Source: Flavobacteriales bacterium (lineage in GTDB: Bacteria > Bacteroidota > Bacteroidia > Flavobacteriales_D > Sanyastnellaceae). Taken from it: DNA of 42,078 bases. The notes beneath the pieces were generated by a model, which worked only from the letters and a program-made list of their open reading frames with translations, was not told the DNA's origin and did not search any database. The translations under genes were made by a program, and so were the position numbers. Positions 792 through 42,078 of this stretch are shown here, in pieces. The stretch lies in assembly GCA_947442505.1 (NCBI GenBank), contig CANEVR010000018.1, forward strand, positions 1 to 42,078. Reading direction: 5' to 3'. Within the stretch, counting starts at the first letter, position 1, and every line of letters begins with the position of its first letter.

Positions 792-3335
792 ATGGAGGCT
801 AAATTTTCACCACAGGTAAAAGATGTATTGTCTTTTAGTAGAGAGGAAGCATTGCGTTTGGGGCACTCTTACATTGGTCCTGAGCATTTGATGTTGGGTA
901 TAATCAGAGAGGGAGAGAGTTTGGCAGCCAACCTCATGAAACGCATGGGCATTGATATGAATTATTTGCGCAAGCAAATAGAATCAACGATGCGCTTGGC
1001 TTCTGTAGCTACCGCCAATCAAGGGCTGCAGACGGTACCGCTAACCACACAGGCAGAGCGAATTCTTAAATTGACTTATTTAGAGGCTAAAAATTTCAAA
1101 GCTTCTTTGGTAGGCACTGAACATTTGCTTTTAAGCATATTGAAAGATCAGGACAATGCTGCCACACGCACGTTAGTTGGTTTTGGCATAGATTACAAAA
1201 TGGTACGAGAGGAATTGATCACATCCGAAGGGCTAGAATCTCCCTCTGATACCCCATTGAACACCCCAAGAGCTGAATTCCCATCGGCAGATGATGATGA
1301 GGATCAATTCATGGGCAGCAGCAGCGGTTCATCAGCTGCTAAGAAGCCCGGGGACAACAAAAGCAAGACACCCGTTTTGGATAATTTCGGAAGAGATTTA
1401 ACCAAAATGGCTGAAGATGGAAAATTGGATCCTATTGTTGGACGTGAAAAAGAGATTGAACGAGTAAGCCAAGTTTTATCCAGAAGGAAGAAAAACAATC
1501 CCATATTGATTGGAGAGCCTGGTGTAGGTAAATCAGCCATTGCTGAAGGTTTGGCTTTGCGCATTGTTCAGAAGAAAGTGAGCCGAGTCCTTTTTGGAAA
1601 GCGTGTGGTTACACTTGATGTTGCTTCATTGGTTGCTGGTACCAAATACCGAGGGCAGTTTGAAGAGCGCATGAAAGCATTGATGAACGAATTGGAGAAA
1701 TCACCTGATGTTATCTTATTCATCGATGAAATTCACACCATTGTTGGTGCTGGAGGCGCGAGTGGATCTTTAGATGCCAGCAACATGTTCAAACCAGCCT
1801 TGGCACGTGGCGAGATTCAATGCATTGGAGCTACCACTTTGGATGAGTACCGCCAGTACATCGAGAAAGATGGCGCATTGGAGAGAAGATTCCAAAAGGT
1901 CGTTGTTGACCCAACAACTATCCCAGAGACGATTCAAATTTTGAATAACATCAAAGACAAATATGAGGAGCACCACAGTGTAACTTATACCGATGAAGCT
2001 ATTGAGGCTTGCGTGAAATTAACGGGACGCTATATCACAGACCGTCATTTGCCGGATAAGGCCATTGATGCTTTGGATGAAGTGGGATCACGTGTGCATT
2101 TGAACAATATTCAGGTGCCACAGGAAATTATTGAGATAGAGAAAGCCATTGAGGATGTGAAGTTGGAAAAAACGCAAGTCGTTAAATCTCAGAAATACGA
2201 GGAGGCTGCAAAATTGCGTGACAAAGAAAAGCAATTGAATGACCGTTTGGATGCTGCCAAATCTCAATGGGAACAGGATGCTAAAACACATAGGGTTACG
2301 GTTACAGAAGCCAATGTTGAGGAAGTAGTAGCCATGATGACCGGTATTCCTGTTAATCGCGTGGCTGAGAAAGAAAGTGGTCGTTTGGCCAAAATGGACC
2401 AAGAGTTAGAAGGAAAAGTAATTGGACAAGACGAAGCGATTAAGAAAGTGGTTCGTGCCATTAAAAGAAATCGCGCGGGATTGAAAGATCCCAATCGTCC
2501 TATTGGTTCATTTTTGTTTCTTGGACCAACAGGTGTTGGAAAAACACAACTGGCCAAAGAATTGGCGAAATTCCTTTTTGATTCTGAAGACTCATTGATT
2601 CGCATTGACATGTCAGAATACATGGAGAAGTTTGCTGTATCTCGTTTGATTGGAGCGCCTCCCGGCTATGTCGGTTATGAAGAAGGTGGACAATTGACAG
2701 AAAAAGTAAGACGTCGCCCCTACTCAATTGTATTGTTGGATGAGGTGGAGAAAGCGCATCCGGATGTTTTCAATTTGTTGTTGCAAGCATTAGATGATGG
2801 ACAGATGACGGACAGTTTGGGAAGAAAAATTGACTTTAAAAACACCGTAATCATCATGACATCTAATATCGGTGCAAGACAATTGCAAGATTTTGGATCA
2901 GGTGTTGGTTTTGGTACATCTTCTAGAGCATCCAGCGAAGAAATGGATCGAAAAGGAATCATTGAGGCTGCTTTGAGAAAAGTTTTTGCACCAGAATTTT
3001 TGAATCGTGTGGATGACTTAATTGTATTCAATTCTTTGACCAAAGATCACATTCATCAGATCATTGACATCGAGTTGGCCAAGTTGTTCCATCGCATTAC
3101 AGACTTGGGATACAAAATTGAATTAACAGATGCCGCAAAGGATTTCATCGCTGACAAAGGATATGATGAAAAGTATGGTGCCCGTCCGCTAAGAAGATCC
3201 ATTCAGAAATACCTAGAGGATCCCATTGCAGAAGAAATCATCAATTCAAATTTGCAAGAAGGAGATACATTGTTGGTTGACTTTGATGCCAACGAGTCAA
3301 AGATCATCATGAAGGTGAATAAAAAAGAATCGTAA
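792..3335 (+). CDS. clpC: ClpC-type AAA+ unfoldase
   Basis: ClpC is the HSP100 ATPase that unfolds proteins and feeds them to the ClpP protease. The 847 residues show the full layout: a double Clp N-terminal repeat (about 1-145), an acidic/serine linker (165-185), a first AAA module with Walker A GEPGVGKS at 241-248 and Walker B VILFIDEIHT, a UVR-type coiled region around 450-490, and a second AAA module with GPTGVGKT at 578-585 and SIVLLDEVEKAHPDV. The ATG at 792 is chosen over a TTG three bases upstream, because MEAKFSPQV matches the family start. The UVR region and short middle domain argue for ClpC rather than ClpB. The stop overlaps the next gene's start (TAATG). Confidence 0.95.
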   Translation: MEAKFSPQVKDVLSFSREEALRLGHSYIGPEHLMLGIIREGESLAANLMKRMGIDMNYLRKQIESTMRLASVATANQGLQTVPLTTQAERILKLTYLEAKNFKASLVGTEHLLLSILKDQDNAATRTLVGFGIDYKMVREELITSEGLESPSDTPLNTPRAEFPSADDDEDQFMGSSSGSSAAKKPGDNKSKTPVLDNFGRDLTKMAEDGKLDPIVGREKEIERVSQVLSRRKKNNPILIGEPGVGKSAIAEGLALRIVQKKVSRVLFGKRVVTLDVASLVAGTKYRGQFEERMKALMNELEKSPDVILFIDEIHTIVGAGGASGSLDASNMFKPALARGEIQCIGATTLDEYRQYIEKDGALERRFQKVVVDPTTIPETIQILNNIKDKYEEHHSVTYTDEAIEACVKLTGRYITDRHLPDKAIDALDEVGSRVHLNNIQVPQEIIEIEKAIEDVKLEKTQVVKSQKYEEAAKLRDKEKQLNDRLDAAKSQWEQDAKTHRVTVTEANVEEVVAMMTGIPVNRVAEKESGRLAKMDQELEGKVIGQDEAIKKVVRAIKRNRAGLKDPNRPIGSFLFLGPTGVGKTQLAKELAKFLFDSEDSLIRIDMSEYMEKFAVSRLIGAPPGYVGYEEGGQLTEKVRRRPYSIVLLDEVEKAHPDVFNLLLQALDDGQMTDSLGRKIDFKNTVIIMTSNIGARQLQDFGSGVGFGTSSRASSEEMDRKGIIEAALRKVFAPEFLNRVDDLIVFNSLTKDHIHQIIDIELAKLFHRITDLGYKIELTDAAKDFIADKGYDEKYGARPLRRSIQKYLEDPIAEEIINSNLQEGDTLLVDFDANESKIIMKVNKKES

Positions 3336-3757
3336 TGAATCAATCCACATACCCCTCGGCAATATCTTGGGGCATTTGGATTCCAGTTTATGCCCTGATA
3401 CTTGGTCAGGGCATTTTCTTTTCCCAAGAAATGAATCCACTATTTATCATCTTTCATTTTGCTCTGGCTGTATTGATATATTTTTTTGTGGTACGTATTA
3501 AGTATACCTTGGATGATCAACATCTTCGCATTTACATGGGGCCAATTTTATATCGATCCATTGAGATTCAATCCATTCGAAAAATGGAAAAGAGCAACAA
3601 TCCATTGAGTTCTCCCGCTGCTTCATTGAGGAGAATTGCCATACATTACAACAAGTGGGGATATGTTTTGATATCGCCAAGAGATCGCGAAAGTTTCATG
3701 GAAGAAGTTTGGAAAAGAAAAGCACAATTGGAAATCAATGCACAAAAAGATCATTGA
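3335..3757 (+). CDS. Small membrane protein with bacterial PH-like domain
   Basis: 140 residues. Two hydrophobic helices (about 12-28 and 35-52) are followed by a soluble part whose strand pattern (KYTLDDQHLRIYMGPI, then IEIQSIRKMEKSNN and RIAIHYNKWGYVLISPRD) fits the bacterial PH-domain families found on two-helix anchors. The ending, a phrase like ISPRDRESFMEEV, is typical of these proteins. The function is not known. Its start overlaps the clpC stop by one base, so it is probably co-translated, but that does not prove a shared role. Its 3' end overlaps the convergent rhomboid gene by 23 bases. Confidence 0.7.
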   Translation: MNQSTYPSAISWGIWIPVYALILGQGIFFSQEMNPLFIIFHFALAVLIYFFVVRIKYTLDDQHLRIYMGPILYRSIEIQSIRKMEKSNNPLSSPAASLRRIAIHYNKWGYVLISPRDRESFMEEVWKRKAQLEINAQKDH

Positions 3758-4403
3758 AAACCACTTGAAAAAAATGAAGATAGAAATGCCAATCCCAAAT
3801 GGCGACCATAATTGCTCCGCCCAAAGCACCATACAAGTGGGCATCGTGGGCAATTAATCCATGTCCTTTCTTACTGAAATAATGTTCGAGTCCCAGAAAA
3901 ACTAAGGCTCCCACCCACGCTGGCATAGGTATAATCATAAAGAAACCCACCTCCATTTCAGGGAAGATGAGCATAAAGGCCATCATGACTGCGCTCACAG
4001 CGCCCGATGCGCCAACACTCCTGTAGGCATATTGGTCACTGTGTTTCAAAATAGCCGGTATACAAGCAATCGCGCCTCCTATGAAATAGAGTAAAACATA
4101 AAACATTTTCCCCATCATTGGGCTCCAAGGCTGAAAATAAGGATTGGTCTGCGCCAATATCTCAGGGTTGGTCATCACCCATTCCATGACTTGACCAAAA
4201 GAATAAAAGGTATACATGTTGAAACCCAAGTGCATCCAATCGGCATGAACAAAGGTGTGACCAAAAATTCGGTCCCACTCGTTGTTGTATTTGACAACAT
4301 ATGGATGTAACGCCAATCGATTGAAAAGTGCGTTATTCTCCCATGCCAAATAAGAGACAATAACCGTTATACCTATAATAATGAATGTAATTGGCGTAAT
4401 CAT
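3735..4403 (-). CDS. Rhomboid-family intramembrane serine protease
   Basis: Rhomboids cleave transmembrane substrates inside the inner membrane with a Ser-His dyad. The 222-residue protein has several hydrophobic segments and the family motifs: the HxxxN element (HADWMHLGFNMY, H58/N62), the GxSG motif GASGAVSA with nucleophile S133, and the last-helix AHDAHLYGALGG with H189 as the predicted catalytic histidine. All catalytic positions are intact. The substrate cannot be inferred. It lies two bases downstream of a small lipoprotein gene and is probably in one leftward operon with it and ychF. The tail overlap with the PH-like gene leaves no room for a terminator between the two strands. Confidence 0.9.
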   Translation of the reverse strand: MITPITFIIIGITVIVSYLAWENNALFNRLALHPYVVKYNNEWDRIFGHTFVHADWMHLGFNMYTFYSFGQVMEWVMTNPEILAQTNPYFQPWSPMMGKMFYVLLYFIGGAIACIPAILKHSDQYAYRSVGASGAVSAVMMAFMLIFPEMEVGFFMIIPMPAWVGALVFLGLEHYFSKKGHGLIAHDAHLYGALGGAIMVAIWDWHFYLHFFQVVFNDLFVH

Positions 4404-4405
4404 GA

Positions 4406-4837
4406 TTAACTGCTATGATCGGCCACAATTTGCCATTGGCCGTTTATTTGTTTCCACAGAAGAGAAAATCTTCCGGAAATAATGGTATCTGGATACATTA
4501 AACTCCATTGCCCATCTACCCATGCTGCATCATTTGAAATGATATCAAAATGAAGTTCGTTAAAAGTAAGCGATCCCATTTTCTCCGGTGTATAGCTTTT
4601 CTGATAACGCTTTAAAGTGGCTTGCCACCCTTTGGTAACACCAGACTTTCCCATAAACCGCAAAGAATCACTATGCCAATAAGGTTCCATGAAACCTTCA
4701 AGACTTTTGTTGTTCCATGCCTCTGACTGTTTGTTCATGATTTGCTGAATGGCCAATTTTGGATCCGCAGATGTTGAGCAACCAACAAGTGTCAAGATGC
4801 ATAACAAAAAGAATGTGTGAATCGTTGACTTAAACAT
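4406..4837 (-). CDS. Lipoprotein with SnoaL/DUF4440-like (NTF2 fold) domain
   Basis: 143 residues from the ATG at 4837. That start is preferred over an in-frame upstream one because it gives a clean lipoprotein signal: MFKSTIHTFFLLCILTLVGC, with lipobox LVGC. The mature part resembles NTF2-like DUF4440/SnoaL proteins: an initial helix (IQQIMNKQSEAWNNKSLEGF), the characteristic YWHSDSLRFMGKSGVTKGW, and alternating strands ending in GRFSLLWKQINGQWQIVADH. Such folds serve as small enzymes or binding modules, and the exact role here is unknown. The start overlaps the end of ychF by eight bases, which points to translational coupling. Confidence 0.7.
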   Translation of the reverse strand: MFKSTIHTFFLLCILTLVGCSTSADPKLAIQQIMNKQSEAWNNKSLEGFMEPYWHSDSLRFMGKSGVTKGWQATLKRYQKSYTPEKMGSLTFNELHFDIISNDAAWVDGQWSLMYPDTIISGRFSLLWKQINGQWQIVADHSS

Positions 4838-5930
4838 TGAATCTAAAGTGCATGATGTCGCCATCTTGTACGATGTATTCCTTGCCTTCTACACCCATTT
4901 TACCGGCCTCTTTTACAGCTGCTTCAGATTTGAATTGAACATAGTCGTTGTATTTTATTACCTCAGCACGAATGAATCCTTTTTCAAAATCCGTGTGAAT
5001 AACACCTGCTGCTTGAGGCGCTGTATCTCCTTTGTGGATGGTCCAGGCTCTCACTTCTTTGACACCTGCTGTAAAGTAGGTTTGTAAATTCAACAGATGA
5101 TAAGCTGATTTGATGAGTTTGGAAACACCAGGTTCTTCCAGACCAAGATCTTGAAGAAACATCTGACGCTCTTCAAAAGTTTCCAATGAGGCGATATCCG
5201 CTTCGATGGCTGCACCGATAACAATCACTTGTGCGTTCTCATCTTTGACGGCTTCTTTAACCCTTTCCACGTGAGCATTACCCGACTTTACAGAAGACTC
5301 TTCTACATTACAAACATACATTACGGGCTTTGACGTGAGCAATTGCAAATCATTCATCCAACGCACTTCCTCTTCATTTTGAGGTACCACTACCCTAGCG
5401 CTTTTGCCTTGTTCCAAATTTTCCTTTATTTGGGTATAAAAGTCAAAAAGTTTTTTGGCTTCTTTGTCACCTGTCTTTGCCGCTTTGGCAGTTTTCTGGT
5501 AGCGAGCATCAACACTTTCCAAATCTTTTAATTGAAGCTCAATGTCAATGATTTCTTTGTCTCGAACCGGATCTACACTTCCGTCAACGTGCACCACGTT
5601 GGGGTCATCAAAACAACGAAGGACATGAATGATGGCATCGGTTTCTCGAATATTGGAAAGGAATTTATTTCCCAAACCCTCACCTTTACTCGCACCTTTA
5701 ACCAGACCTGCAATGTCTACAATTTCAATGGTCGTTGGGACAACACGCTCCGGCGTAATCAGTTCAGCCAATGCTGTTAATCTTTCGTCGGGAACCGTGA
5801 TGGTACCTACGTTAGGTTCTATGGTGCAAAAAGGAAAATTGGCAGCTTGTGCTTTGGCGTTGGACAAGCAATTAAACAAAGTTGACTTTCCAACATTAGG
5901 AAGTCCTACGATTCCACATTTTAATGACAT
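4830..5930 (-). CDS. ychF: Ribosome-associated P-loop ATPase YchF/OLA1
   Basis: YchF is a conserved Obg-family protein that prefers ATP and binds ribosomes. Its exact role (stress and translation control) is not settled. The 366 residues start MSLKCGIVGLPNVGKSTLFN, with the P-loop GLPNVGKS at 9-16 and switch residues around NFPFCTIEPNVG. The NxxE motif in place of canonical NKxD is seen as VCNVEESS. The C-terminal TGS domain is recognisable in KEVRAWTIHKGDTAPQAAGV and IHTDFEKGFIRAEVI. The length is the family norm. A -7 box, TACATTTG on the minus strand at 5955-5948, lies 17 bases before the ATG. Confidence 0.96.
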   Translation of the reverse strand: MSLKCGIVGLPNVGKSTLFNCLSNAKAQAANFPFCTIEPNVGTITVPDERLTALAELITPERVVPTTIEIVDIAGLVKGASKGEGLGNKFLSNIRETDAIIHVLRCFDDPNVVHVDGSVDPVRDKEIIDIELQLKDLESVDARYQKTAKAAKTGDKEAKKLFDFYTQIKENLEQGKSARVVVPQNEEEVRWMNDLQLLTSKPVMYVCNVEESSVKSGNAHVERVKEAVKDENAQVIVIGAAIEADIASLETFEERQMFLQDLGLEEPGVSKLIKSAYHLLNLQTYFTAGVKEVRAWTIHKGDTAPQAAGVIHTDFEKGFIRAEVIKYNDYVQFKSEAAVKEAGKMGVEGKEYIVQDGDIMHFRFNV

Positions 5931-5947
5931 AAGAAAAATTTGAGTCG

Positions 5948-5983
5948 CAAATGTACGATTGCGCTCGCTGTTTTATACATTTG
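5948..5983. promoter_or_regulatory. Back-to-back promoters for ychF and the His-rich small protein
   Basis: The minus-strand box TACATTTG (5955-5948) sits 17 bases before the ychF ATG. The plus-strand box TACATTTG (5976-5983) sits 16 bases before the ATG at 6000. The identical 8-mer on both strands makes a symmetric divergent promoter region. Confidence 0.6.
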
Positions 5984-5999
5984 TAAAAACAAAATAAAA

Positions 6000-6137
6000 A
6001 TGGGACATCACGAAGAACATCATGGCCATCACGAGGCTAAGCAAAATGAAATTGGCGGTCCAGTAACCTTGGCGGTTATGCTATTTGCCATTGCTGTTGT
6101 AGTTATTTACTTTATGATTGAGTGGTCTGATCGTTGA
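6000..6137 (+). CDS. 45-residue histidine-rich single-pass membrane protein
   Basis: The short protein begins MGHHEEHHGHHEAKQN. It has six histidines within the first eleven residues, followed by a turn (EIGGP), one hydrophobic helix of about 20 residues and a short charged tail (EWSDR). The ATG at 6000 is chosen because the -7 box TACATTTG ends 16 bases before it and the upstream frame has only a TTG. It has its own promoter and a strong terminator, so it looks like a genuine monocistronic gene. The His cluster could bind metal. Small single-helix subunits of respiratory complexes look similar, but no family assignment is possible from sequence alone. Confidence 0.7.
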   Translation: MGHHEEHHGHHEAKQNEIGGPVTLAVMLFAIAVVVIYFMIEWSDR

Positions 6138-6153
6138 TCAAATAAATAGTTAA

Positions 6154-6181
6154 GAAAAAAGCGCCTTTTGGCGCTTTTTTT
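6154..6181. terminator. Bidirectional rho-independent terminator
   Basis: A GCGCC-TTTT-GGCGC hairpin flanked by A-run and T-run (perfectly symmetric, stem 11 bp with the A/T arms) lies between the convergent His-rich gene and the DUF5777 gene and can serve both. Confidence 0.9.
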
Positions 6182-6193
6182 ATTCCTGGTATC

Positions 6194-7099
6194 TTACTCA
6201 TCAAACCCTTTGGGCTTTTTGATGGTAAAAACCCTTGAGATATTAAAACCAAATTGAATGTCTCCTTTGTTCCAATTTCCTGTTGTTTCTGAAATGAATC
6301 CTTTTTCATTCATGGAGCTACTATTGGTAAGATGCAATTGAAACACGTGTCCTCCTGTTTCAATATCCACGCCCAAACTCAAGCTGTTGTTGACTTCAGC
6401 ACCGATGTTCTTAGTAATCAAACTGAAATATTCTGCATTGAAAGTCAGTCTTCTTGTTATTTTATAACGACCTCCATAACCCAATGCAAAAAGGTCATGT
6501 GCGATAGCTGAAGTTTCTACCAAATTTCGGTGAATGTGTGTTGGAGAAAGTTGGAGGGATAAATGCTCATTCATTTTTCTGGCCAATAACAATTGGTTGC
6601 AGAAGTACAACCGTGATGTGAAAAAATTCTCTCTATTGGGGTCCGCCCATTCAGTTCCTCGCATCACAGTTGAACCAAAGTAAGACAACGAAATGGGCAT
6701 TTTCTTCGGACCAGATTCAACTTGCCTTAAGATTTTAATTTTGGTAAACGCGTCAACTTCTTCATTGACATTTGAGCGACCTATCCCAACCATGATTCTA
6801 TCTGTCAGTCCGTATTCGAAACCCAAACGCATGCTGGCCAGATCCAAACCAAACAATTTGTGTATGCCCGTGTTAAAAGTGCCAAATCGGTGACTTACCC
6901 GAAAGTCCATCACACCACCCGCAACATTCTCAATGGATTGTCCATTGATGACGCGTGTTGATTTGAAAGTAGCGGAAGAATAAGCAATAGGGTCTTCATC
7001 ACCGAGAAGCGCCAAGAGGTCCGTGGTATCGGATTGAGCAAAAACAAAATGACCTTGAATCATCATCAAGGTCATTAATAAAGAGAACTTCTTAATCAT
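6194..7099 (-). CDS. DUF5777 family outer-membrane beta-barrel protein
   Basis: 301 residues with a signal peptide (MIKKFSLLMTLMMIQGHFVFA, cleaved before QSD). The N-terminal mature part matches the DUF5777 pattern: ATFKSTRVINGQSIENVAGG, then MDFRVSHRFGTFNTG and LRLGFEYGLTDRIMVGIGRS-like strands. The rest alternates hydrophobic/polar strands ending in FGFNISRVFTIKKPKG, as in outer-membrane barrels. The biochemical role is unknown. It is the last gene of a leftward operon after an OB-fold protein and YceI, one base after the YceI stop. These families are often found together in Bacteroidota, which suggests a shared envelope or redox/lipid task (inference). Confidence 0.85.
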   Translation of the reverse strand: MIKKFSLLMTLMMIQGHFVFAQSDTTDLLALLGDEDPIAYSSATFKSTRVINGQSIENVAGGVMDFRVSHRFGTFNTGIHKLFGLDLASMRLGFEYGLTDRIMVGIGRSNVNEEVDAFTKIKILRQVESGPKKMPISLSYFGSTVMRGTEWADPNRENFFTSRLYFCNQLLLARKMNEHLSLQLSPTHIHRNLVETSAIAHDLFALGYGGRYKITRRLTFNAEYFSLITKNIGAEVNNSLSLGVDIETGGHVFQLHLTNSSSMNEKGFISETTGNWNKGDIQFGFNISRVFTIKKPKGFDE

Positions 7100-7100
7100 A

Positions 7101-7649
7101 TTATTTCTTGAATTCAGTCAATTCAGCCTTTGCTGTTACTTCAATGGACTCGGAAATATTGTTCTTCAAATTGGCTTCAATCTTAATGTTGTGATCTGCA
7201 CATTTCACATTGAATTTGGTTTCAGCATTGATTTTTCCACCGGCCACTTTGAAAGTAACTTCTGAAGTGTAAGCCTTGCTTACTCCATGAATATCTAGAT
7301 TTCCTGAAATTTTAGTTTTATAAACACCATCCTTCTTGATGTTCACTGAAGCAACATTTTCTATTTTACCTTTGAAAGTAGCTTTGGGAAACTTGGCGCT
7401 TTCCACATAGTTCTCATTGTAGTGCTCTTCCATTAGCGCCTTTTCAAATTTGAAATTGGTTTGAAGAGCTGAAACTTGAATATCTCCCGTTGCCCAATCA
7501 ATCACATAACTGACGTTATTGTTATTGGCTTTGATGTCTTCTATGTTGGTTTTTGAGTAGAATCCAAGGAAACCAGTTCTTGTTGCATACTTTTGAGCAA
7601 ATGCAGATGTTGTTATCAATAACAACGATGCGAGGATAACACTTTTCAT
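7101..7649 (-). CDS. YceI-family periplasmic lipid-binding-like protein
   Basis: 182 residues from the ATG at 7649, which gives a clean signal peptide (MKSVILASLLLITTSAFAQ). An upstream in-frame start would add nine residues before it. YceI proteins are lipocalin-like barrels that bind polyisoprenoid or amphiphilic ligands. Family features seen are the conserved early strand GFLGFYSKTNIEDIKANNNN, the region YNENYVESAKFPKATFKGKI (family pattern dxFfda.kyPkatF), and ISGNLDIHGVSKAYTSEVTF (family L.ihGvtk.v...v). The ending is shortened relative to classic YceI. Middle gene of the OB-fold/YceI/DUF5777 operon. Confidence 0.9.
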   Translation of the reverse strand: MKSVILASLLLITTSAFAQKYATRTGFLGFYSKTNIEDIKANNNNVSYVIDWATGDIQVSALQTNFKFEKALMEEHYNENYVESAKFPKATFKGKIENVASVNIKKDGVYKTKISGNLDIHGVSKAYTSEVTFKVAGGKINAETKFNVKCADHNIKIEANLKNNISESIEVTAKAELTEFKK

Positions 7650-32064: not shown

Positions 32065-32481
32065 ATGAAATTAAAGACAGAGAACATTTTTCAGATAACA
32101 GAAATACCTGCATCCAAACATGAAGTCTATGAGGCTTTAACAGATGCCAAAGTATTTTACGCCATCACAGGGTTACACGCAGAGTTTCATTCAGAACCGG
32201 GTACTTATTTCATTTCAGAAAATAAGAAAGTTAGTGGGTATTATTTGAGCTTGGAGCAGGATGAATTTATCGTGATGGCATGGAGGCATGAGTATTTCTA
32301 TCGTGGAATTCATACCTTGGTTCATATTGAACTGACGGAAATGGAGGATGGCGGAACGCGCATTCACTTTAATCACGTAGGTGTACCTGAAGAACATGCT
32401 GGTTGGTTGACAGAGCATTGGAAGCGCGATGTGTGGTCGCTTTTCTTGGCTCATTTTAAAGCACTTAAAAGTAATCCATGA
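32065..32481 (+). CDS. SRPBCC/AHSA1-like (Aha1 domain) protein
   Basis: 138 residues without a signal peptide. The opening strand-helix (IFQITEIPASKHEVYEALTD, then AKVFYAITG) and the ending (GTRIHFNHVGVPEEHAGWLT, then EHWKRDVWSLFLAHFKALK) are the START-like helix-grip fold of activator-of-Hsp90-ATPase family proteins. Proteins of this type bind hydrophobic ligands or chaperones; the ligand here is unknown. Its TGA stop overlaps the ATG of the SulP transporter (ATGA), so translation of the two is coupled. Confidence 0.85.
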   Translation: MKLKTENIFQITEIPASKHEVYEALTDAKVFYAITGLHAEFHSEPGTYFISENKKVSGYYLSLEQDEFIVMAWRHEYFYRGIHTLVHIELTEMEDGGTRIHFNHVGVPEEHAGWLTEHWKRDVWSLFLAHFKALKSNP

Positions 32482-34001
32482 ATAAAATAAAGGACAATTT
32501 ATTTCCTTCTCTTTTGGTTTTCTTGGTGGCACTTCCATTGTGTCTGGGAATTGCCTTGGCTTCTGGTGTGACGCCATTTGCTGGATTAATTGCAGGCATT
32601 GTAGGAGGTATTGTAGTAGGAATAATCAGCGGTTCTCATTTGAGTGTAAGTGGACCTGCGGCTGGTTTAACCATACTTGTGGCCAATGCCATCATACAAC
32701 TAAATGATTATACCCTCTTTTTAACCGCTGTTGTATTGGCGGGAATGCTTCAAATTATTTTTGGATTAATCAAGGCCGGAAAATTGGGAGAATATGTTCC
32801 CAACAATGTCATTCGTGGCATGATGGCCGCCATTGGATTGATTCTCATTTTAAAGCAAATACCGCACTTGGTTGGTTTTGATCATGATTTTGAGGGCGAT
32901 GAAGATTTTGTGCAACCCGACGGAGAAAACACATTTACTGAAGTCATATTGGCTTTTTTAAGAATAACGCCCAATGCTGCTATCATTGGCTTGGGTAGTT
33001 TGCTCTTTTTATTGGTGTGGGATAACTTTATTGTTTATCGATGGAAGGCCTTAAAATTTTTACCGGGATCATTGTTGGTCGTAATCATGGGGATCTTGAT
33101 GACATTTTTTTGGACTGGTACAAATTTGGCCATGTTGCCAGAACATTTGGTGAATGTGCCTGTCGTTGAGCATTGGTCGGATTGGTCAGGAAAAATGATT
33201 ACCCCAAATTTCAATGGAATCGCGCAAGTCAATGTTTGGATGGTCGCTTTTACCATTGCTCTAGTAGCCAGTTTAGAGAGCCTTCTGGGCGTTGAGGCCG
33301 TGGATAAACTTGATCCACTAAAACGAAGTACACCCAATAATCGTGAATTGATTGCGCAAGGCGTTGGTAATTCCGTTTCTGGTTTGTTGGGTGGAATACC
33401 AGTCACCTCTGTTGTGGTGCGCAGTACAGCCAATATCAGTGCTGGAGCTACGAATAAGATGAGCGCAATCCTGCATGGCGTTTTTATTTTGTTGAGCATT
33501 CTTTTCATTCCACATCTATTGAACCTGATACCCCTTGCCTCACTGGCTGCTGTGCTGATAACAGTTGGATACAAATTGGTAAAACCGTCCATCTTTATTG
33601 AAATCTGGAAACAAGGACGGGTTCAGTTTATTCCTTTTTTAGTAACCGTTTTGGCCATCCTTTTCTTGGGACTATTGAAAGGAATTGGAATTGGAATGTT
33701 GATTGGTATATTTTACGTCATCAAAAGAAATTTTCATGACGGTGTCAATCTGTATCAATTGGAAAGCAATTATTTGTTGCGATTCCAAACCGAGGTCACT
33801 TTTTTAAATAAGCCATTGTTAAAGGATTTGTTGTCACAGATACCTGAGAATAGTCAAGTATTGATGGACCTATCAAAAAATGAACGTTTGGATGAAGACA
33901 TCAAGGAAATGATCAGAGAGTATAGAATTCAAGCAGAATTCAAAAGTATCCACGTAGAATTTAAATACAATTCAAGAACCAACATCCCAAAACCCTTTTA
34001 A
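32478..34001 (+). CDS. SulP-family anion transporter, probably bicarbonate-type
   Basis: 507 residues with about ten to twelve membrane helices in the SLC26/SulP pattern: the start FPSLLVFLVALPLCLGIALA, then GVTPFAGLIAGIVGGIVVG, HLSVSGPAAGLTILVANAI and NVIRGMMAAIGLILILKQIP. A C-terminal stretch after helix 12 (about 415-507, YLLRFQTEVTFLNKPLLKDL) is a short STAS-like domain. Its position directly before a beta-carbonic anhydrase gene (one-base gap) suggests bicarbonate or another anion linked to CO2 chemistry, rather than sulfate; no sulfate genes are near. SulP-carbonic anhydrase pairs and fusions are a known arrangement. Substrate specificity cannot be read from the sequence. Confidence 0.9.
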   Translation: MNKIKDNLFPSLLVFLVALPLCLGIALASGVTPFAGLIAGIVGGIVVGIISGSHLSVSGPAAGLTILVANAIIQLNDYTLFLTAVVLAGMLQIIFGLIKAGKLGEYVPNNVIRGMMAAIGLILILKQIPHLVGFDHDFEGDEDFVQPDGENTFTEVILAFLRITPNAAIIGLGSLLFLLVWDNFIVYRWKALKFLPGSLLVVIMGILMTFFWTGTNLAMLPEHLVNVPVVEHWSDWSGKMITPNFNGIAQVNVWMVAFTIALVASLESLLGVEAVDKLDPLKRSTPNNRELIAQGVGNSVSGLLGGIPVTSVVVRSTANISAGATNKMSAILHGVFILLSILFIPHLLNLIPLASLAAVLITVGYKLVKPSIFIEIWKQGRVQFIPFLVTVLAILFLGLLKGIGIGMLIGIFYVIKRNFHDGVNLYQLESNYLLRFQTEVTFLNKPLLKDLLSQIPENSQVLMDLSKNERLDEDIKEMIREYRIQAEFKSIHVEFKYNSRTNIPKPF

Positions 34002-34002
34002 T

Positions 34003-34638
34003 ATGGACAGCATTTCAAAATTATTGTTAGAGAATGAAGCTTGGGCTAGAGAAAAGGTTGAATTAGATCCTGAGTATTTTTCTCGCTTGTCCAAAATTCA
34101 AACCCCAGAGTTTTTGTGGATTGGTTGTTCGGATAGTCGTGTTCCTGCCAATGAAATTACAGGGACTGAACCCGGAGAAATATTTGTGCACCGCAATGTT
34201 GCGAATCTGGTTGTTCATACAGATTTGAATCTTTTAAGTGTTTTGTTATACGCGGTAGATGTTTTGAAGGTCAAACACATTATCGTATGCGGACACTATG
34301 GCTGCGGTGGAGTCAAGGCATCATTGACCAATGAAAGCTTTGGTATGATCAACAAATGGTTGCGAAATATCAAAGATGTTTACCGCATCCATGAAGACGA
34401 ATTCAAATCTTTGGAAAATGAAGAGGAAAAAGTCAATCTTTTGGTTGAATTAAATGTCAAAGAGCAAGTTTTAAATTTGGCCAAAACGAGCATTGTTCAA
34501 AGCGCATGGAAACAAAGACAAGGTCCTACCATTCATGGTTGGGTATATGGGTTGAATGATGGAAAATTGAAACCTTTGTGCTCAATGGATCATCATTCAA
34601 AATTGGATGACATTTACACCTACAACAACTTGGGTTAA
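34003..34638 (+). CDS. Beta-class carbonic anhydrase
   Basis: Interconverts CO2 and bicarbonate with a zinc bound by two Cys and one His. The 211 residues carry the Zn ligands C42 (in WIGCSDSRVPANE, with D44 and R46 as the gate dyad), H98 and C101 (CGHYGCGGVK). The sequence matches the Can/CynT-like plant-type class, cytoplasmic, without a signal peptide. It is tightly coupled to the SulP gene and probably converts imported bicarbonate or recycles CO2. The stop TAA and the stop of the convergent tsaD share the bases TTAA, so the two transcripts end within four bases of each other. Confidence 0.95.
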   Translation: MDSISKLLLENEAWAREKVELDPEYFSRLSKIQTPEFLWIGCSDSRVPANEITGTEPGEIFVHRNVANLVVHTDLNLLSVLLYAVDVLKVKHIIVCGHYGCGGVKASLTNESFGMINKWLRNIKDVYRIHEDEFKSLENEEEKVNLLVELNVKEQVLNLAKTSIVQSAWKQRQGPTIHGWVYGLNDGKLKPLCSMDHHSKLDDIYTYNNLG

Positions 34639-38875: not shown

Positions 38876-38958
38876 TCATTTTTTTCTTGTTTTTTTTCAA
38901 CAATTCTCTCCATTTCAGGATAGAGATTTTCAAGTTATCCCCAATTCATTAACACTGC

Positions 38959-38989
38959 TTTAATCATCCAAAAAAGGCGAATAGATTTA
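38959..38989 (+). promoter_or_regulatory. Promoter of the SMC-like operon
   Basis: TTTA (38959-38962), a 19-base spacer and TAGATTTA (38982-38989) have the same geometry as the small-RNA promoter at 9438-9468. They would start transcription at about 38993. Confidence 0.5.
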
Positions 38990-38992
38990 CAA

Positions 38993-39014
38993 GGTTGAGC
39001 TTTACGGCTTGACC
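38993..39014 (+). promoter_or_regulatory. 5'-terminal hairpin in the SMC operon leader
   Basis: GGTTGAGC (38993-39000) pairs with GCTTGACC (39007-39014) in 8 pairs (two wobbles) over the loop TTTACG. It begins at the predicted transcription start and lies about 20 bases before the ATG, with AAGGA before the start codon. Confidence 0.45.
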
Positions 39015-39033
39015 CTAAACAAATTTTTAAGGA

Positions 39034-41694
39034 ATGATTACACGAATTATTGGTATCAATACCAGTACCTATGTGAACGCAGAAATGCGTTTGGACGACT
39101 GCGATTCATTGCAGCTTGTAGGGCCCAACAACGTTGGTAAATCGACGTTGATTTACACCCTCAATTTCTTGTTCATTGTCGATGGATCCAAGATGTCTTT
39201 CTCCGGTCAGCGCCGCGGTGACAAAGAAACCATTCATCACTACTTCCCCACACACAATCAGAGTTACATCATTTTTGAAATCAAAAAAAATGATGCCGAA
39301 TATTGTATTCTAGTGAAACGCGACAGCGATGGAGAATTGGAATATTTCCGTTTGAATTGCGAATACCGCTCTGAATATTTCTTCACCAAAGAAGGTACAC
39401 ACCAACGTATCCGCAAATGGGATGAAGTACAAGCGACGTTGGAAGAAGAAAAAGTTGAATTGTATTTGTACAAGAGCAAGACAGAAGTTTTCAATGCCGT
39501 TTACGCACGTGGCAAGCGCAATGAAGCTGTTATTTGGTTAGAGGATAGCGTCAGAACAGATGGATTATCCAACAATTTCTCAAAGGTTTATCGCTATTTG
39601 ATCAATTCTAAATTGATCACCAACAAAACCTTGAAAGAGTCTTTGATCATTGCCGACAACCGCGAAAATGAAGGACTTTCCTTCTCTCAAAAGAACAAGA
39701 AAGACATCAATGACTTGTTGCGTATCAATGAGGAAATCAAAACCATCAAGTCCATTCAAAAAGATTTCGAAGAGTTTCGCGAAGTAGTAAACTTGTTCAG
39801 AGCCAAAAATAAAATCGTTAGTGATTTGGTTTATGCTTTTGACAAACAATACAACGGGGTCATTCAAGACTTGGATTCAGGTCGTTTGGACAAAGAGAAA
39901 AATTTCCAAACCACATTGGTCAATGTCAATGAAAAATTGAAGCCCCGTCAGGAAGAATTGAACCGCGAGATTGGAAAGAAAGAGACAGAGGAAGAAATGT
40001 TGGAGAGAGAATTCATTGGTATGCAATCACAGCTGGATGAAATCAACTCTTTTGAGACTAAGAAGTTCTTGGATGAGGCTTTGATCAATCTGGATGCGAA
40101 GAGAAAGGAAACTGAAGTTCGCATTACAACAGTTGAGAACAAAAAATTGGACACCAAGCAACTGGAATCCAAATTGGGCAAATTGGACAGCGCCATTGCG
40201 CTATTTGAAAATCAGATCAAGAATTATGATGACCAGTTGATCCAAAAGATTACCGGTGATGATGAATCGAGAAAGATATTGAATGCAATCTTCACACCGG
40301 AGTTCGCTACCCTACCCTCCAATTTGGTAAAGAAAAAGATCTCCAAAGTTGGAGCGAGCATGAACATCTTTGATGGTGAAATCAAATTGCCCAAGGACAT
40401 GCCATCCAAAGATCTTCCCTCTGTGAAAGCACTGAAAGAGGAATTGGCAGAGGTTCAGTCGGAGAAAATTGAATTGGAAAAACTTTGGGCAGTGGCCATG
40501 CACTTGGACAAGGCGCAGAAAGAGTTGCAAAAAGTAAATGAAGACATCGAGGCCACTAAGGAAAAATTACGCAAGCTCAAAGAGAAACCAAGTTTAGAAA
40601 AGAAAATTTCTGAATTGGGTAAGCAATTGCGCGAGGTTAAAGGTGAAAAACAAACATTGGAAGAAGAGTTGCGCAAGCTAAAGAAAGAGATCAACGAAAA
40701 AACCTTGGCCTTGGATACCTGGAAAGAAGATATCCGCAAGTCAGAGGAAAGGTTGATTGAGTTGAAGCGAAGAAAGCAAGAAATTGAAATGTTGGGAATT
40801 GTTCCGACCGCTTTTGATACAACAGAATCTTTGGACGATATCTACCAAAAAATCAAATTGGTTAGCCAAGATCGAGAAACACTAAAGGCTAACAAGGACC
40901 GTACATTTGATCAGTTGCGTTTCAAAACTAACAGCGCCACCGCGGATGAGAAAGAGTTCATCAAGTTCATTGAAGACGAGATAGCTTGTATTCAAGACAA
41001 AGAAAAATCCATTGATGGTTTGTTGGCTTCTATATCCACACAATTCGCCAATCCAGCTTACAACCTGAGAAAGCGATTCGAAGAGTTCAAGGCTTTTGTT
41101 TACAACAAATTCAATGATAGTTTATCAAAGACCCGCATCTCCAATATTGAGAGTTTGCGCATCGAATTGGTAGACAACAAAAGAGTATTGTTTGATTTGG
41201 AGCGCATATCATCGATTGAGAATTTAACCTCTCAATTGGCCTTCGAATTTGAGCAAGGCGAGGATTTGAAAATATTGAACAATTACTTGGACAATGGAAA
41301 GACCATTGAGTTTGAGGATTTGTTTGACATTGAATTGCACCTGAACATCAAAGGCACTTTGAAGCGTGTGGATTTGAAAGAGCAAGTAGAATCTGACGGT
41401 ACGGATAGGATGATTCGTTTGGTTATTGTCATGGCCATCATCAATCGTTTGGCCATTAGCTCTCCTCAAAATAAAATTGCCCTCTTCATTGACGAGATTG
41501 GAACCATTGATGAGCAAAACCGACCTCAGCTGGTGCAGTTCTGTAAGGAGCACAACTACTTGCCCATCTTTGCGGCGCCTCAGCCTTATGACGGATTCTC
41601 CAAGTATTATTTCATCTTCCGTTCAAAAGGAAAGATCAATTTGAATGATCGCCAACATGCTGTAAGACGTGAAGAATTAAATCTATTGAACTAA
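39034..41694 (+). CDS. SMC/condensin-like coiled-coil ATPase, start of an unassigned operon
   Basis: 886 residues. A head half-domain at the N-terminus has Walker A GPNNVGKST at 30-38. A long coiled coil (about 250-410 and 460-660) is broken by a short non-coiled stretch (about 410-460), where a hinge would be; there is no CxxC zinc hook. The other head half at the end has Walker B LFIDEIG (D820/E821) with IDEQNRPQLVQFCKEHNYLP. The ABC signature is unusual: SDGTDRMIRLVIVMAII replaces LSGGE/Q. The layout resembles the MukB/MksB/JetC class but is shorter than typical (about 1000-1200). It would bind and perhaps loop or cut-gate DNA. It is coupled to the next two ORFs (TAATG). Confidence 0.8.
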   Translation: MITRIIGINTSTYVNAEMRLDDCDSLQLVGPNNVGKSTLIYTLNFLFIVDGSKMSFSGQRRGDKETIHHYFPTHNQSYIIFEIKKNDAEYCILVKRDSDGELEYFRLNCEYRSEYFFTKEGTHQRIRKWDEVQATLEEEKVELYLYKSKTEVFNAVYARGKRNEAVIWLEDSVRTDGLSNNFSKVYRYLINSKLITNKTLKESLIIADNRENEGLSFSQKNKKDINDLLRINEEIKTIKSIQKDFEEFREVVNLFRAKNKIVSDLVYAFDKQYNGVIQDLDSGRLDKEKNFQTTLVNVNEKLKPRQEELNREIGKKETEEEMLEREFIGMQSQLDEINSFETKKFLDEALINLDAKRKETEVRITTVENKKLDTKQLESKLGKLDSAIALFENQIKNYDDQLIQKITGDDESRKILNAIFTPEFATLPSNLVKKKISKVGASMNIFDGEIKLPKDMPSKDLPSVKALKEELAEVQSEKIELEKLWAVAMHLDKAQKELQKVNEDIEATKEKLRKLKEKPSLEKKISELGKQLREVKGEKQTLEEELRKLKKEINEKTLALDTWKEDIRKSEERLIELKRRKQEIEMLGIVPTAFDTTESLDDIYQKIKLVSQDRETLKANKDRTFDQLRFKTNSATADEKEFIKFIEDEIACIQDKEKSIDGLLASISTQFANPAYNLRKRFEEFKAFVYNKFNDSLSKTRISNIESLRIELVDNKRVLFDLERISSIENLTSQLAFEFEQGEDLKILNNYLDNGKTIEFEDLFDIELHLNIKGTLKRVDLKEQVESDGTDRMIRLVIVMAIINRLAISSPQNKIALFIDEIGTIDEQNRPQLVQFCKEHNYLPIFAAPQPYDGFSKYYFIFRSKGKINLNDRQHAVRREELNLLN

Positions 41695-41807
41695 TGAAAA
41701 CCTTTGATAACGAATTTCAATACACCCCTTCAATTGTAGAAAATCTTGAAGAGGTAAAAGTAAAATTTCACTTGATTGAAACCAGCGAAATAGCACAAAA
41801 TGATTAA
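41694..41807 (+). CDS. 37-residue ORF, translationally coupled inside the SMC operon
   Basis: The ATG at 41694 overlaps the SMC-gene stop by one base (TAATG), and its own stop overlaps the next ORF's start by eight bases (ATGATTAA). The peptide (MKTFDNEFQYTPSIVENL, then EEVKVKFHLIETSEIAQND) is acidic, without membrane helix, signal or cysteine. Coupling on both sides suggests it is translated, but it is too short to assign. It might be an ATPase-binding peptide, or merely a translational relay to the third gene. Confidence 0.45.
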   Translation: MKTFDNEFQYTPSIVENLEEVKVKFHLIETSEIAQND

Positions 41808-42078
41808 AGCCGAACCACGGACCATATTAAACTTTTTGCACACCTACTTTGATGTAGTGCGAGACCTCTTTGAGTTCCAATCCCATGATGGATTGATATC
41901 CAGAGAAGCTTTTGACATGATTGTCAAAAAGCATGGTCAGCAAAACATCGTGGGTAAGCTGAAAGAGTACCGCATCGTAAGGAGCATCGGTAGTGATTTT
42001 GAAATGCGAGATGTGTATTTCAAAATGATGGAGTTCCTATTGTTTGAGTTCAAACCTTTGCTACCTGAGACCATCGAA
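41800..42078 (+). CDS. N-terminal part of an operon partner of the SMC-like ATPase (cut by window edge)
   Basis: 93 residues are visible, starting MIKAEPRTILNFLHTYFDVV and continuing RDLFEFQSHDGLISREAFDM, IVKKHGQQNIVGKLKEYRIV and RSIGSDFEMRDVYFKMMEFL before the window ends. The arrangement of short helices followed by RIVRSIGSDFEMRDVY suggests a winged-helix-type opening, as found in kleisin-like subunits (MksF/JetA type) of small condensins. That is inference from shape and context, not from a recognised family. It begins inside the stop of the 37-residue ORF, so it is translated in coupling with the SMC-like gene. Confidence 0.55.
   Translation, partial: MIKAEPRTILNFLHTYFDVVRDLFEFQSHDGLISREAFDMIVKKHGQQNIVGKLKEYRIVRSIGSDFEMRDVYFKMMEFLLFEFKPLLPETIE

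What the first reader, a model, noticed from the sequence alone, without database searches (positions are those of the whole stretch)
39034..42078. Compact SMC-like operon of unknown type at the right edge
An 886-residue SMC/MukB-like ATPase with an atypical signature (SDGTDRM instead of LSGGE/Q) and no zinc hook is coupled to a tiny ORF and a gene with a possible winged-helix start. It has its own promoter. Known condensin-type defence systems of the Wadjet class start with the kleisin and end with a nuclease. Here the ATPase comes first, and the partners visible are not recognisable. Gene order and length differ enough to be a new or lineage-specific condensin or defence system.
Basis: partly seen in the sequence, partly recalled or inferred. 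Interest (0 to 1): 0.72.

Follow-up and report, generated by a model that had tools for sequence, protein, structure and literature searches.

The report
Compact nuclease-less MksBEF condensin with microprotein
The genes at the window's right edge encode a small MksBEF-type DNA-organising machine (condensin) whose relatives sometimes still carry a plasmid-cutting-type nuclease gene in the middle of the operon, so it looks like a plasmid-defence system that became a chromosome organiser.

Summary
An intact 886-aa SMC/MukB-like ATPase (39034-41694) is followed by a 37-aa ORF and the start of a third gene, where the contig ends. A same-genus genome (ATPase 98% identical) shows the whole operon on one contig: ATPase, microORF, 399-aa MukF/MksF-like kleisin, 180-aa MksE (PF21980, E=3e-17 for the window genome's own copy on contig C72). 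The 'atypical' signature is the SxGT form of MksB/JetC relatives.

Beyond that, it is a compact Bacteroidota family with permuted order B-[G]-F-E. Slot 2 holds a TOPRIM, JetD/MksG-like gene in 9 of 72 loci with B and F in view; 63 lack it, and one of these keeps a 55-codon C-terminal nuclease remnant. Nuclease-bearing Flavobacteriaceae copies look horizontally transferred; nuclease-less copies in the window's family do not. No SMC passed cut-off in 60 genomes of the window's order. In the window's clade the slot carries a conserved microprotein.

Best reading: a Wadjet-derived, nuclease-less condensin, the only SMC-type condensin recognised in its host. Chromosomal function is inferred, not shown.

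The parts
39034..41694 (+). MksB-like SMC ATPase, 886 aa: head formed by both ends, coiled-coil arms (helices 219-400 and 464-698 in the model), small low-confidence turn/hinge at about 400-463
   Evidence: AlphaFold model pLDDT 78.6, pTM 0.51; best PDB matches MukB, then JetC
41694..41807 (+). microORF, 37 aa (MKTFDNEFQYTPSIVENLEEVKVKFHLIETSEIAQND), overlapping the ends of both neighbours; conserved stretch around EVKVKFHL
   Evidence: codon-position test
41800..42078 (+). N-terminal 93 codons of the MksF-like kleisin (399 aa complete in the same-genus locus L099:5654-6853), cut by the contig end; continues on own contig C72 (L003:10758-11897, minus strand). The MksE gene lies outside the window (L003:10213-10755, minus strand)
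   Evidence: model; fold matches; MksE: PF21980 E=3.1e-17
38876..39033 (.). 158-bp gap upstream of mksB; promoter not demonstrated

Best explanation
A compact, nuclease-less MksBEF condensin of Bacteroidota. The ATPase (MksB) is inferred to dimerise through a small hinge and to bind and hydrolyse ATP at paired heads; the MksF kleisin is inferred to bridge the heads and recruit MksE, forming a ring that entraps and probably extrudes chromosomal DNA loops. It most likely derives from a JetABCD/MksBEFG-like plasmid-defence system with gene order B-G-F-E by loss of the TOPRIM nuclease G. In the window's clade the position between mksB and mksF carries a conserved 33-41 aa microprotein gene that stays upstream of mksF even when mksB has moved away, so it is most likely a small accessory factor of the MksF/MksE side. 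Shown here: gene content, homology of B and E, conservation of the microORF, recurrent presence/absence of G, one nuclease remnant, no SMC over cut-off and no ScpA in 60 genomes of the window's order. Inferred: ATPase activity, kleisin function of F, complex assembly, loop extrusion, chromosomal role, direction of change (loss of G), role of the microprotein.
For: MksE: PF21980 E=3.1e-17. ATPase and MksE hits fall in the same 17 of 60 genomes; 16 are this compact family and one (G050) is a canonical longer system. MksB model: best Foldseek matches MukB 1.3e-20 and JetC 6.2e-13 (TM-scores 0.3-0.4 because the arms differ); VIA Z 23.3 to the MukB head, 379 residues at 4.7 A. Walker A, S787/G789/T790 of the signature and D820/E821 of Walker B invariant in the 43 MksB. 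Slot 2: G in 9 of 72 loci with B and F in view (no further G in six frames), with invariant E142 and D185/D187 in TOPRIM-like context and weak JetD_C/DUF7281 matches. L139, in a fully supported four-row clade with L145, L152 and G-bearing L155, keeps a 55-codon G C-terminus (HMM E=2.6e-7; 54.5% identical to L155 G). G presence needs at least 4 changes on starred branches of the MksB tree. SMC: 0 of 60 over cut-off (at most 9 candidates scored per genome); ScpA 0 of 60; among 50 genomes with this family SMC in 2 of 9 G-bearing and 0 of 41 others. Same-genus pair L050/L052: MksB 91%, YchF 90%, transketolase halves 83-84%. G-bearing Flavobacteriaceae: MksB 92-93% in three pairs where pyruvate kinase is 75-78%.
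Against: No experiment. MksF is not matched by Pfam, PADLOC or NCBIfam (Pfam and PADLOC again), and its MukF match is modest (Foldseek 5e-3 to 1e-2; VIA Z about 12.9 at high rmsd, no better than syntaxin at 13.5). If it were essential one would expect it everywhere, but 43 of 60 genomes have neither this system, MksE nor SMC over cut-off. A divergent G elsewhere in the genome was not excluded: the JetD_C search (1 of 60, in a genome without this system) would miss the family's own sub-threshold G. The change count cannot tell loss from gain of G; the 8-11 losses assume loss only. The tree is a quick one with long branches flagged. L155/L166 G are more diverged (0.69) than their MksB (0.40), so G and B did not always evolve in step. 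In pair L049/L051 MksB (76%) is more conserved than the three neighbours compared (38-68%), and L176/L177 (MksB 82%, pyruvate kinase 77%) gives little sign of transfer. The fossil is one MAG locus.
Confidence: 0.72

Rival explanations
1. It is still a Wadjet-like plasmid/phage defence system; the nuclease is supplied in trans or the microprotein is a replacement effector.
For: Patchy distribution (16 of 60); 3 of the 6 G-bearing loci whose neighbours I read sit beside genes that read as IS110-type (L173), REP-type (L176) transposases or a resolvase (L167); MksB and MksE are related to JetC/JetB.
Against: No JetD_C in any of the 16 compact-system genomes among 60 (would miss a divergent G); housekeeping-looking neighbours in the four window-family loci compared (L049-L052); presence is uniform within every genus with two or more sampled genomes except g1, whose three misses are 60-85% complete genomes; the microprotein is conserved only over about 11 residues and shows no catalytic-looking pattern.
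Confidence: 0.2
2. A DNA-repair SMC-like ATPase (RecN/SbcC/Lamassu type) with unrelated neighbours.
For: Weak coiled-coil and P-loop matches to LmuB and AriA models; Rad50 heads score as well as JetC in the structure comparison (Z 19.9 and 19.5).
Against: No zinc hook; MksE partner in the operon and identical presence pattern in 60 genomes; MukB scores above Rad50 (Z 22-23 against 19.9; E 1e-20 against 1e-12).
Confidence: 0.03
3. The microORF is only a leader for translational coupling, its peptide without function.
For: It overlaps mksF in the window's genus and in L101, L105, L107, L108 and L115; its N-terminal half is variable.
Against: In eight other loci (L100, L102, L103, L104, L106, L110, L111, L112) the overlap is gone (12-26 nt to mksF) yet the motif persists; codon position 3 varies more than position 2 (0.58 against 0.22 mismatch; permutation p=0.0004), although counts of variable columns alone are not significant (7 against 11 of 11, Fisher p=0.09); it stays with mksF when mksB is elsewhere (L061) or a gene is inserted between them (L052).
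Confidence: 0.25

Closest known systems
MksBEF of Pseudomonas aeruginosa (nuclease-less Mks condensin)
   Same: SMC-like B, kleisin F, kite E, no nuclease gene; [quoted passage not shown]
   Different: Gene order here is B-F-E; a Bacteroidota-specific sequence family below the cut-offs of PADLOC and NCBIfam models; an extra microprotein gene
MksBEFG / Wadjet (JetABCD) plasmid defence
   Same: Homologous core; relatives in this family carry a TOPRIM-like gene weakly matching JetD_C/DUF7281
   Different: No nuclease in the window's operon; family order B-G-F-E is a cyclic permutation of mksFEBG (order per PMC10123090, passages); ATPase 886 aa against 1111 aa in C. glutamicum (same passages); G is short (261-279 aa)
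MukBEF
   Same: Head fold and partner types; closest solved structures
   Different: Solved full-length MukB chains have 1467 residues, so longer arms; no profile match to PDB sequences
SMC-ScpAB
   Same: General SMC architecture
   Different: No ScpA-type kleisin; SMC over cut-off and ScpA in 0 of 60 genomes

Membership tests
MksBEF | SMC-type ATPase with MukB-like head and long coiled-coil arms | tested here: met
   Model and PDB matches, MukB first; motifs
MksBEF | Kite subunit MksE encoded in the same operon | tested here: met
   PF21980 3.1e-17, over cut-off; adjacent in L047/L099
MksBEF | MksF kleisin with N- and C-terminal winged-helix domains bridging the SMC heads | tested here: inconclusive
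   Helix/strand layout with end domains; MukF top Foldseek hit at E 5e-3, Z about 12.9 tied with syntaxin; no sequence family match; binding not testable
MksBEF | No nuclease gene in the operon | tested here: met
   B-microORF-F-E contiguous in L047/L099
MksBEF | Acts in chromosome organisation | not testable with these tools
   Needs genetics or Hi-C
Wadjet (JetABCD) | JetD/MksG TOPRIM nuclease in the operon | tested here: not met
   Absent in L047/L099 and in all 15 loci of the window's clade with mksF in view; JetD_C not found in own genome
Wadjet (JetABCD) | Match to PADLOC JetA/B/C/D models at E <= 0.001 | tested here: not met
   F and E: none; B: JetC only at 0.16; relatives: JetC 0.01 (L057), JetD 0.0039 for the G of L058
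Rad50/SbcC | Zinc hook CxxC at the apex | tested here: not met
   No CxxC in the ATPase
SMC-ScpAB | Full-length SMC over cut-off and ScpA partner | tested here: not met
   Own ATPase 21.1 bits against cut-off 567.35 for TIGR02168; ScpA 0 of 60

The most novel reading that the evidence does not exclude
A defence-to-housekeeping transition that can be read from genomes: within one compact Bacteroidota SMC family a mobile, nuclease-armed plasmid-defence complex repeatedly lost its nuclease and became a resident condensin in lineages without SMC-ScpAB, and in one clade the vacated operon position was taken by a new microprotein that is a fourth condensin subunit.
Probability: 0.35. Interest if true: 0.8.

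Novelty: new variant of a known kind. Interest (0 to 1): 0.56.

Why it matters
A 2023 review treats the origin of MksBEF/MukBEF from Wadjet by JetD loss as plausible but unresolved (PMC10586767, passages), and a Hi-C study found no known condensin in its two Bacteroidetes (PMC10197239, passages). This family offers relatives with and without the nuclease, one with a nuclease remnant, mostly in hosts where no SMC was found, so the switch from cutting foreign DNA to organising one's own can be tested directly. It may supply a condensin for part of the Bacteroidota; it does not explain Bacteroides, which no record title among the 80 kept loci names.

Tried and rejected
Sequence profiles against PDB chains found no MukB, JetC or MukF, mostly coiled-coil noise, so fold comparison was used. 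The HP1_ORF34, BAH, AriA, LmuB and Cas12f matches were weak and dropped. Microprotein as a nuclease remnant: the G profile finds nothing in the gaps of the window's clade and the microprotein profile nothing outside that clade (next best E=0.95); undetected, not disproved. An IFDR-like nuclease-contact motif at the N-terminus of MksE (named in PMC10586767): the 14 MksE starts printed, with and without G, show much the same IV..LM.GKF stretch, so no signal. Promoter scans gave nothing usable. Paper searches: MukBEF + microprotein + condensin, 0 papers; Wadjet / Bacteroidota / loss of JetD / MksBEF / domesticat, no such report among the 12 of 628 rows listed; Flavobacterium / condensin / chromosome segregation / MksB, none among the 10 of 32 listed. 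Subscription journals and bioRxiv are not held, so prior reports may exist. No paper was read whole.

Rows left out of counts: the genome scan kept 80 of 131 relatives. Eight loci without mksF in view (L109, L113, L117, L150, L152, L165, L169, L178) were left out of the slot count (80 to 72). Two short MksB fragments (L169, L178) were not in the tree. One search tested the genomes of 50 of 80 loci; of the 41 without seen G, one (L117) has its slot out of view. In the codon-position test 11 of 17 microORF sequences were used: four similar ones (L107, L108, L111, L112) were dropped and L067 and L062 gave no block. Phylum samples scored two candidates per genome (searches show '(2)').
Full report
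OBSERVATION. The ATPase ORF, the tiny ORF and the truncated third gene are present as described. The window is an entire contig (C18, 42078 bases) of a 2.64 Mb draft genome; contig C72 overlaps its end at 97-98% and continues the third gene, followed there by a 180-aa gene. A same-genus genome has the operon unbroken on one contig: B 2888-5548, F 5654-6853, E 6856-7398 (L047 = L099), so nothing rests on joining contigs.

IDENTITY OF THE PARTS. Gene 4 is MksE: PF21980, E=3.1e-17, 63.8 bits against a cut-off of 27. The ATPase has no Pfam or NCBIfam match over cut-off and only weak PADLOC ones, but a relative at 54% identity passes DUF3584 (L057, 34.4 bits against 31), which PADLOC's notes name for JetC as MukB-like. 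Its AlphaFold model (pLDDT 78.6, pTM 0.51) matches MukB (1.3e-20) and JetC (6.2e-13) best by E-value, with VIA Z 23.3 over 379 residues at 4.7 A to the MukB head; JetC (19.5) ties with Rad50 (19.9) there. The kleisin candidate has no family match; its model (pLDDT 79.4, pTM 0.44) finds MukF first, but only at E=5e-3 and at Z about 12.9, tied with helical bundles such as syntaxin. I take it as a kleisin from fold, size, place and co-inheritance; by fold alone it is inconclusive. The SDGT signature called atypical is SxGT in every MksB/JetC row read, except L165, where an internal deletion removes it.

DISTRIBUTION. In the window's genome and its 59 nearest, ATPase matches occur in 17 and MksE in the same 17; 16 are the compact family and G050 is a canonical longer system. 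Presence is uniform in every genus with two or more sampled genomes except the window's own, where the three misses are 60-85% complete. In 395 genomes drawn across the phylum only G243 (47%) is a close relative besides the own genome; two (G366, G401) are distant at 20-24% and the rest of the 12 hits are short weak matches. A scan of 84,980 species genomes gave 131 relatives, of which 80 were kept; 78 of their record titles name Bacteroidota groups, one says Candidatus Competibacteraceae (L137, probably a mislabelled or mixed bin) and one only uncultured bacterium (L162). Among relatives of Bacteroidetes bacterium UKL13-3 it occurs in 34 of 58.

THE NUCLEASE SLOT. Of 72 loci with B and F in view, 9 have a 261-279 aa gene G between them and 63 have none. 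G carries invariant acidic residues in TOPRIM-like context (VEN or IEN, and DYD). For the five G tested, Pfam matches to DUF7281 or JetD_C are below cut-off (best E 0.0011; L155 none). Of the two distant relatives used as outgroup, L060 reads F-E-B with MksE confirmed by Pfam (5.3e-24), followed by a gene with weak DUF7281/DUF2399 matches (E 4e-4 and 8e-4); L059 has the same layout by my reading, with a weaker match (0.006) on a stretch I chose. On a tree of 78 MksB plus these two, G presence needs at least 4 changes on starred branches (quick tree, long branches flagged). If only loss is allowed that is 8-11 losses. L139, in a fully supported clade with L145, L152 and G-bearing L155, keeps only the last 55 codons of G (54.5% identical to L155 G): a remnant of loss unless it is an assembly artefact. 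G and B distances correlate over the nine (r=0.95, Mantel p=0.0006), driven by the Flavobacteriaceae cluster; L155/L166 is an exception.

MOBILE VERSUS RESIDENT. G-bearing MksB of L176 is 92-93% identical to L170, L173 and L174 and 82% to L177, while its pyruvate kinase is 75-78% identical to theirs (one housekeeping gene): horizontal transfer is likely for the first three. Of six G-bearing loci whose neighbours I read, three (L167, L173, L176) have transposase- or resolvase-like genes nearby and three (L155, L170, L174) show none that I recognised; L170 has almost no flank (my reading of translations). In the window's family the same-genus pair L050/L052 has MksB 91%, MksF 90%, YchF 90%, transketolase 83-84%; the cross-genus pair L049/L051 has MksB 76%, MksF 76%, against 68% (Rpe), 63% and 38% (CoaE) for three neighbours (gene names by my reading). 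So MksB there is at the conserved end of its neighbourhood but not anomalously so.

NO SMC. SMC is found at E<=1e-60 in 208 of 247 phylum genomes but over cut-off in 0 of 60 genomes of the window's order, and ScpA in 0 of 60. Of 50 genomes carrying this family, 2 have SMC, both G-bearing (2 of 9), and 0 of 41 others (40 with no G in the slot, one slot out of view). This is confounded by ancestry. 43 of 60 genomes have neither SMC over cut-off, MksE nor this system, so it is not indispensable to the order.

THE MICROPROTEIN. All 15 loci of the window's clade with mksF in view have a 33-41 aa ORF just before mksF with a stretch like EVKVKFHL; L061, L067 and L068 add three more and L062 a divergent one. 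Mismatch by codon position is 0.37/0.22/0.58; a column permutation gives p=0.0004 for position 3 over position 2, while counts of variable columns alone are not significant (p=0.09). It follows mksF, not mksB: it stays there when mksB lies on another contig (L061) and when a gene is inserted between mksB and it (L052). Its profile finds nothing convincing in the other 65 loci.

MECHANISM. Inferred from MukBEF/JetABC biology: ATP-dependent head engagement, kleisin-kite clamping of DNA and loop extrusion, without the cutting step. The microprotein, with one strand-like motif, probably docks on MksF/MksE. Confidence 0.72 for the condensin reading and about 0.4 for the microprotein as a true subunit.

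VERDICT. A new variant of a known kind (MksBEF/Wadjet superfamily).

Noticed in passing
60 genomes of the window's order: 43 of 60 genomes have no SMC over cut-off, no ScpA and neither this MksB nor MksE, several of them 99-100% complete: possibly condensin-free, or with an unrecognised condensin.
   Followed up: partly
L139:8894-9058: Truncated C-terminal 55 codons of the G nuclease between mksB and mksF, preceded by short repetitive-looking sequence.
   Followed up: yes
L052:9926-10804 (reverse-complement coordinates); L103 is the same contig: A gene that reads as an extradiol-dioxygenase-like protein is inserted on the opposite strand between mksB and the microORF.
   Followed up: no
L055/L061 (G013), L056/L062 (G012): mksB and microORF-mksF-mksE lie apart on different contigs; in G013 their neighbours are ones that lie together near mksB in L050, suggesting a local rearrangement.
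   Followed up: partly
L165:1946-4528: This MksB lacks an internal stretch that holds the signature motif and Walker B (860 aa): a decayed copy or an assembly error.
   Followed up: no
L066 (G050): Canonical-order longer Mks/Wadjet operon with two extra genes between mksE and the 1224-aa ATPase, followed by a DUF7281 gene (E=1.6e-9).
   Followed up: no
L130:8700-13115: Two genes that read as secreted proteins with C-terminal sorting-like tails are inserted between mksB and mksF.
   Followed up: no
window 32478-34638: SulP-type transporter followed closely by a beta-carbonic-anhydrase-like gene, as read from translations.
   Followed up: no
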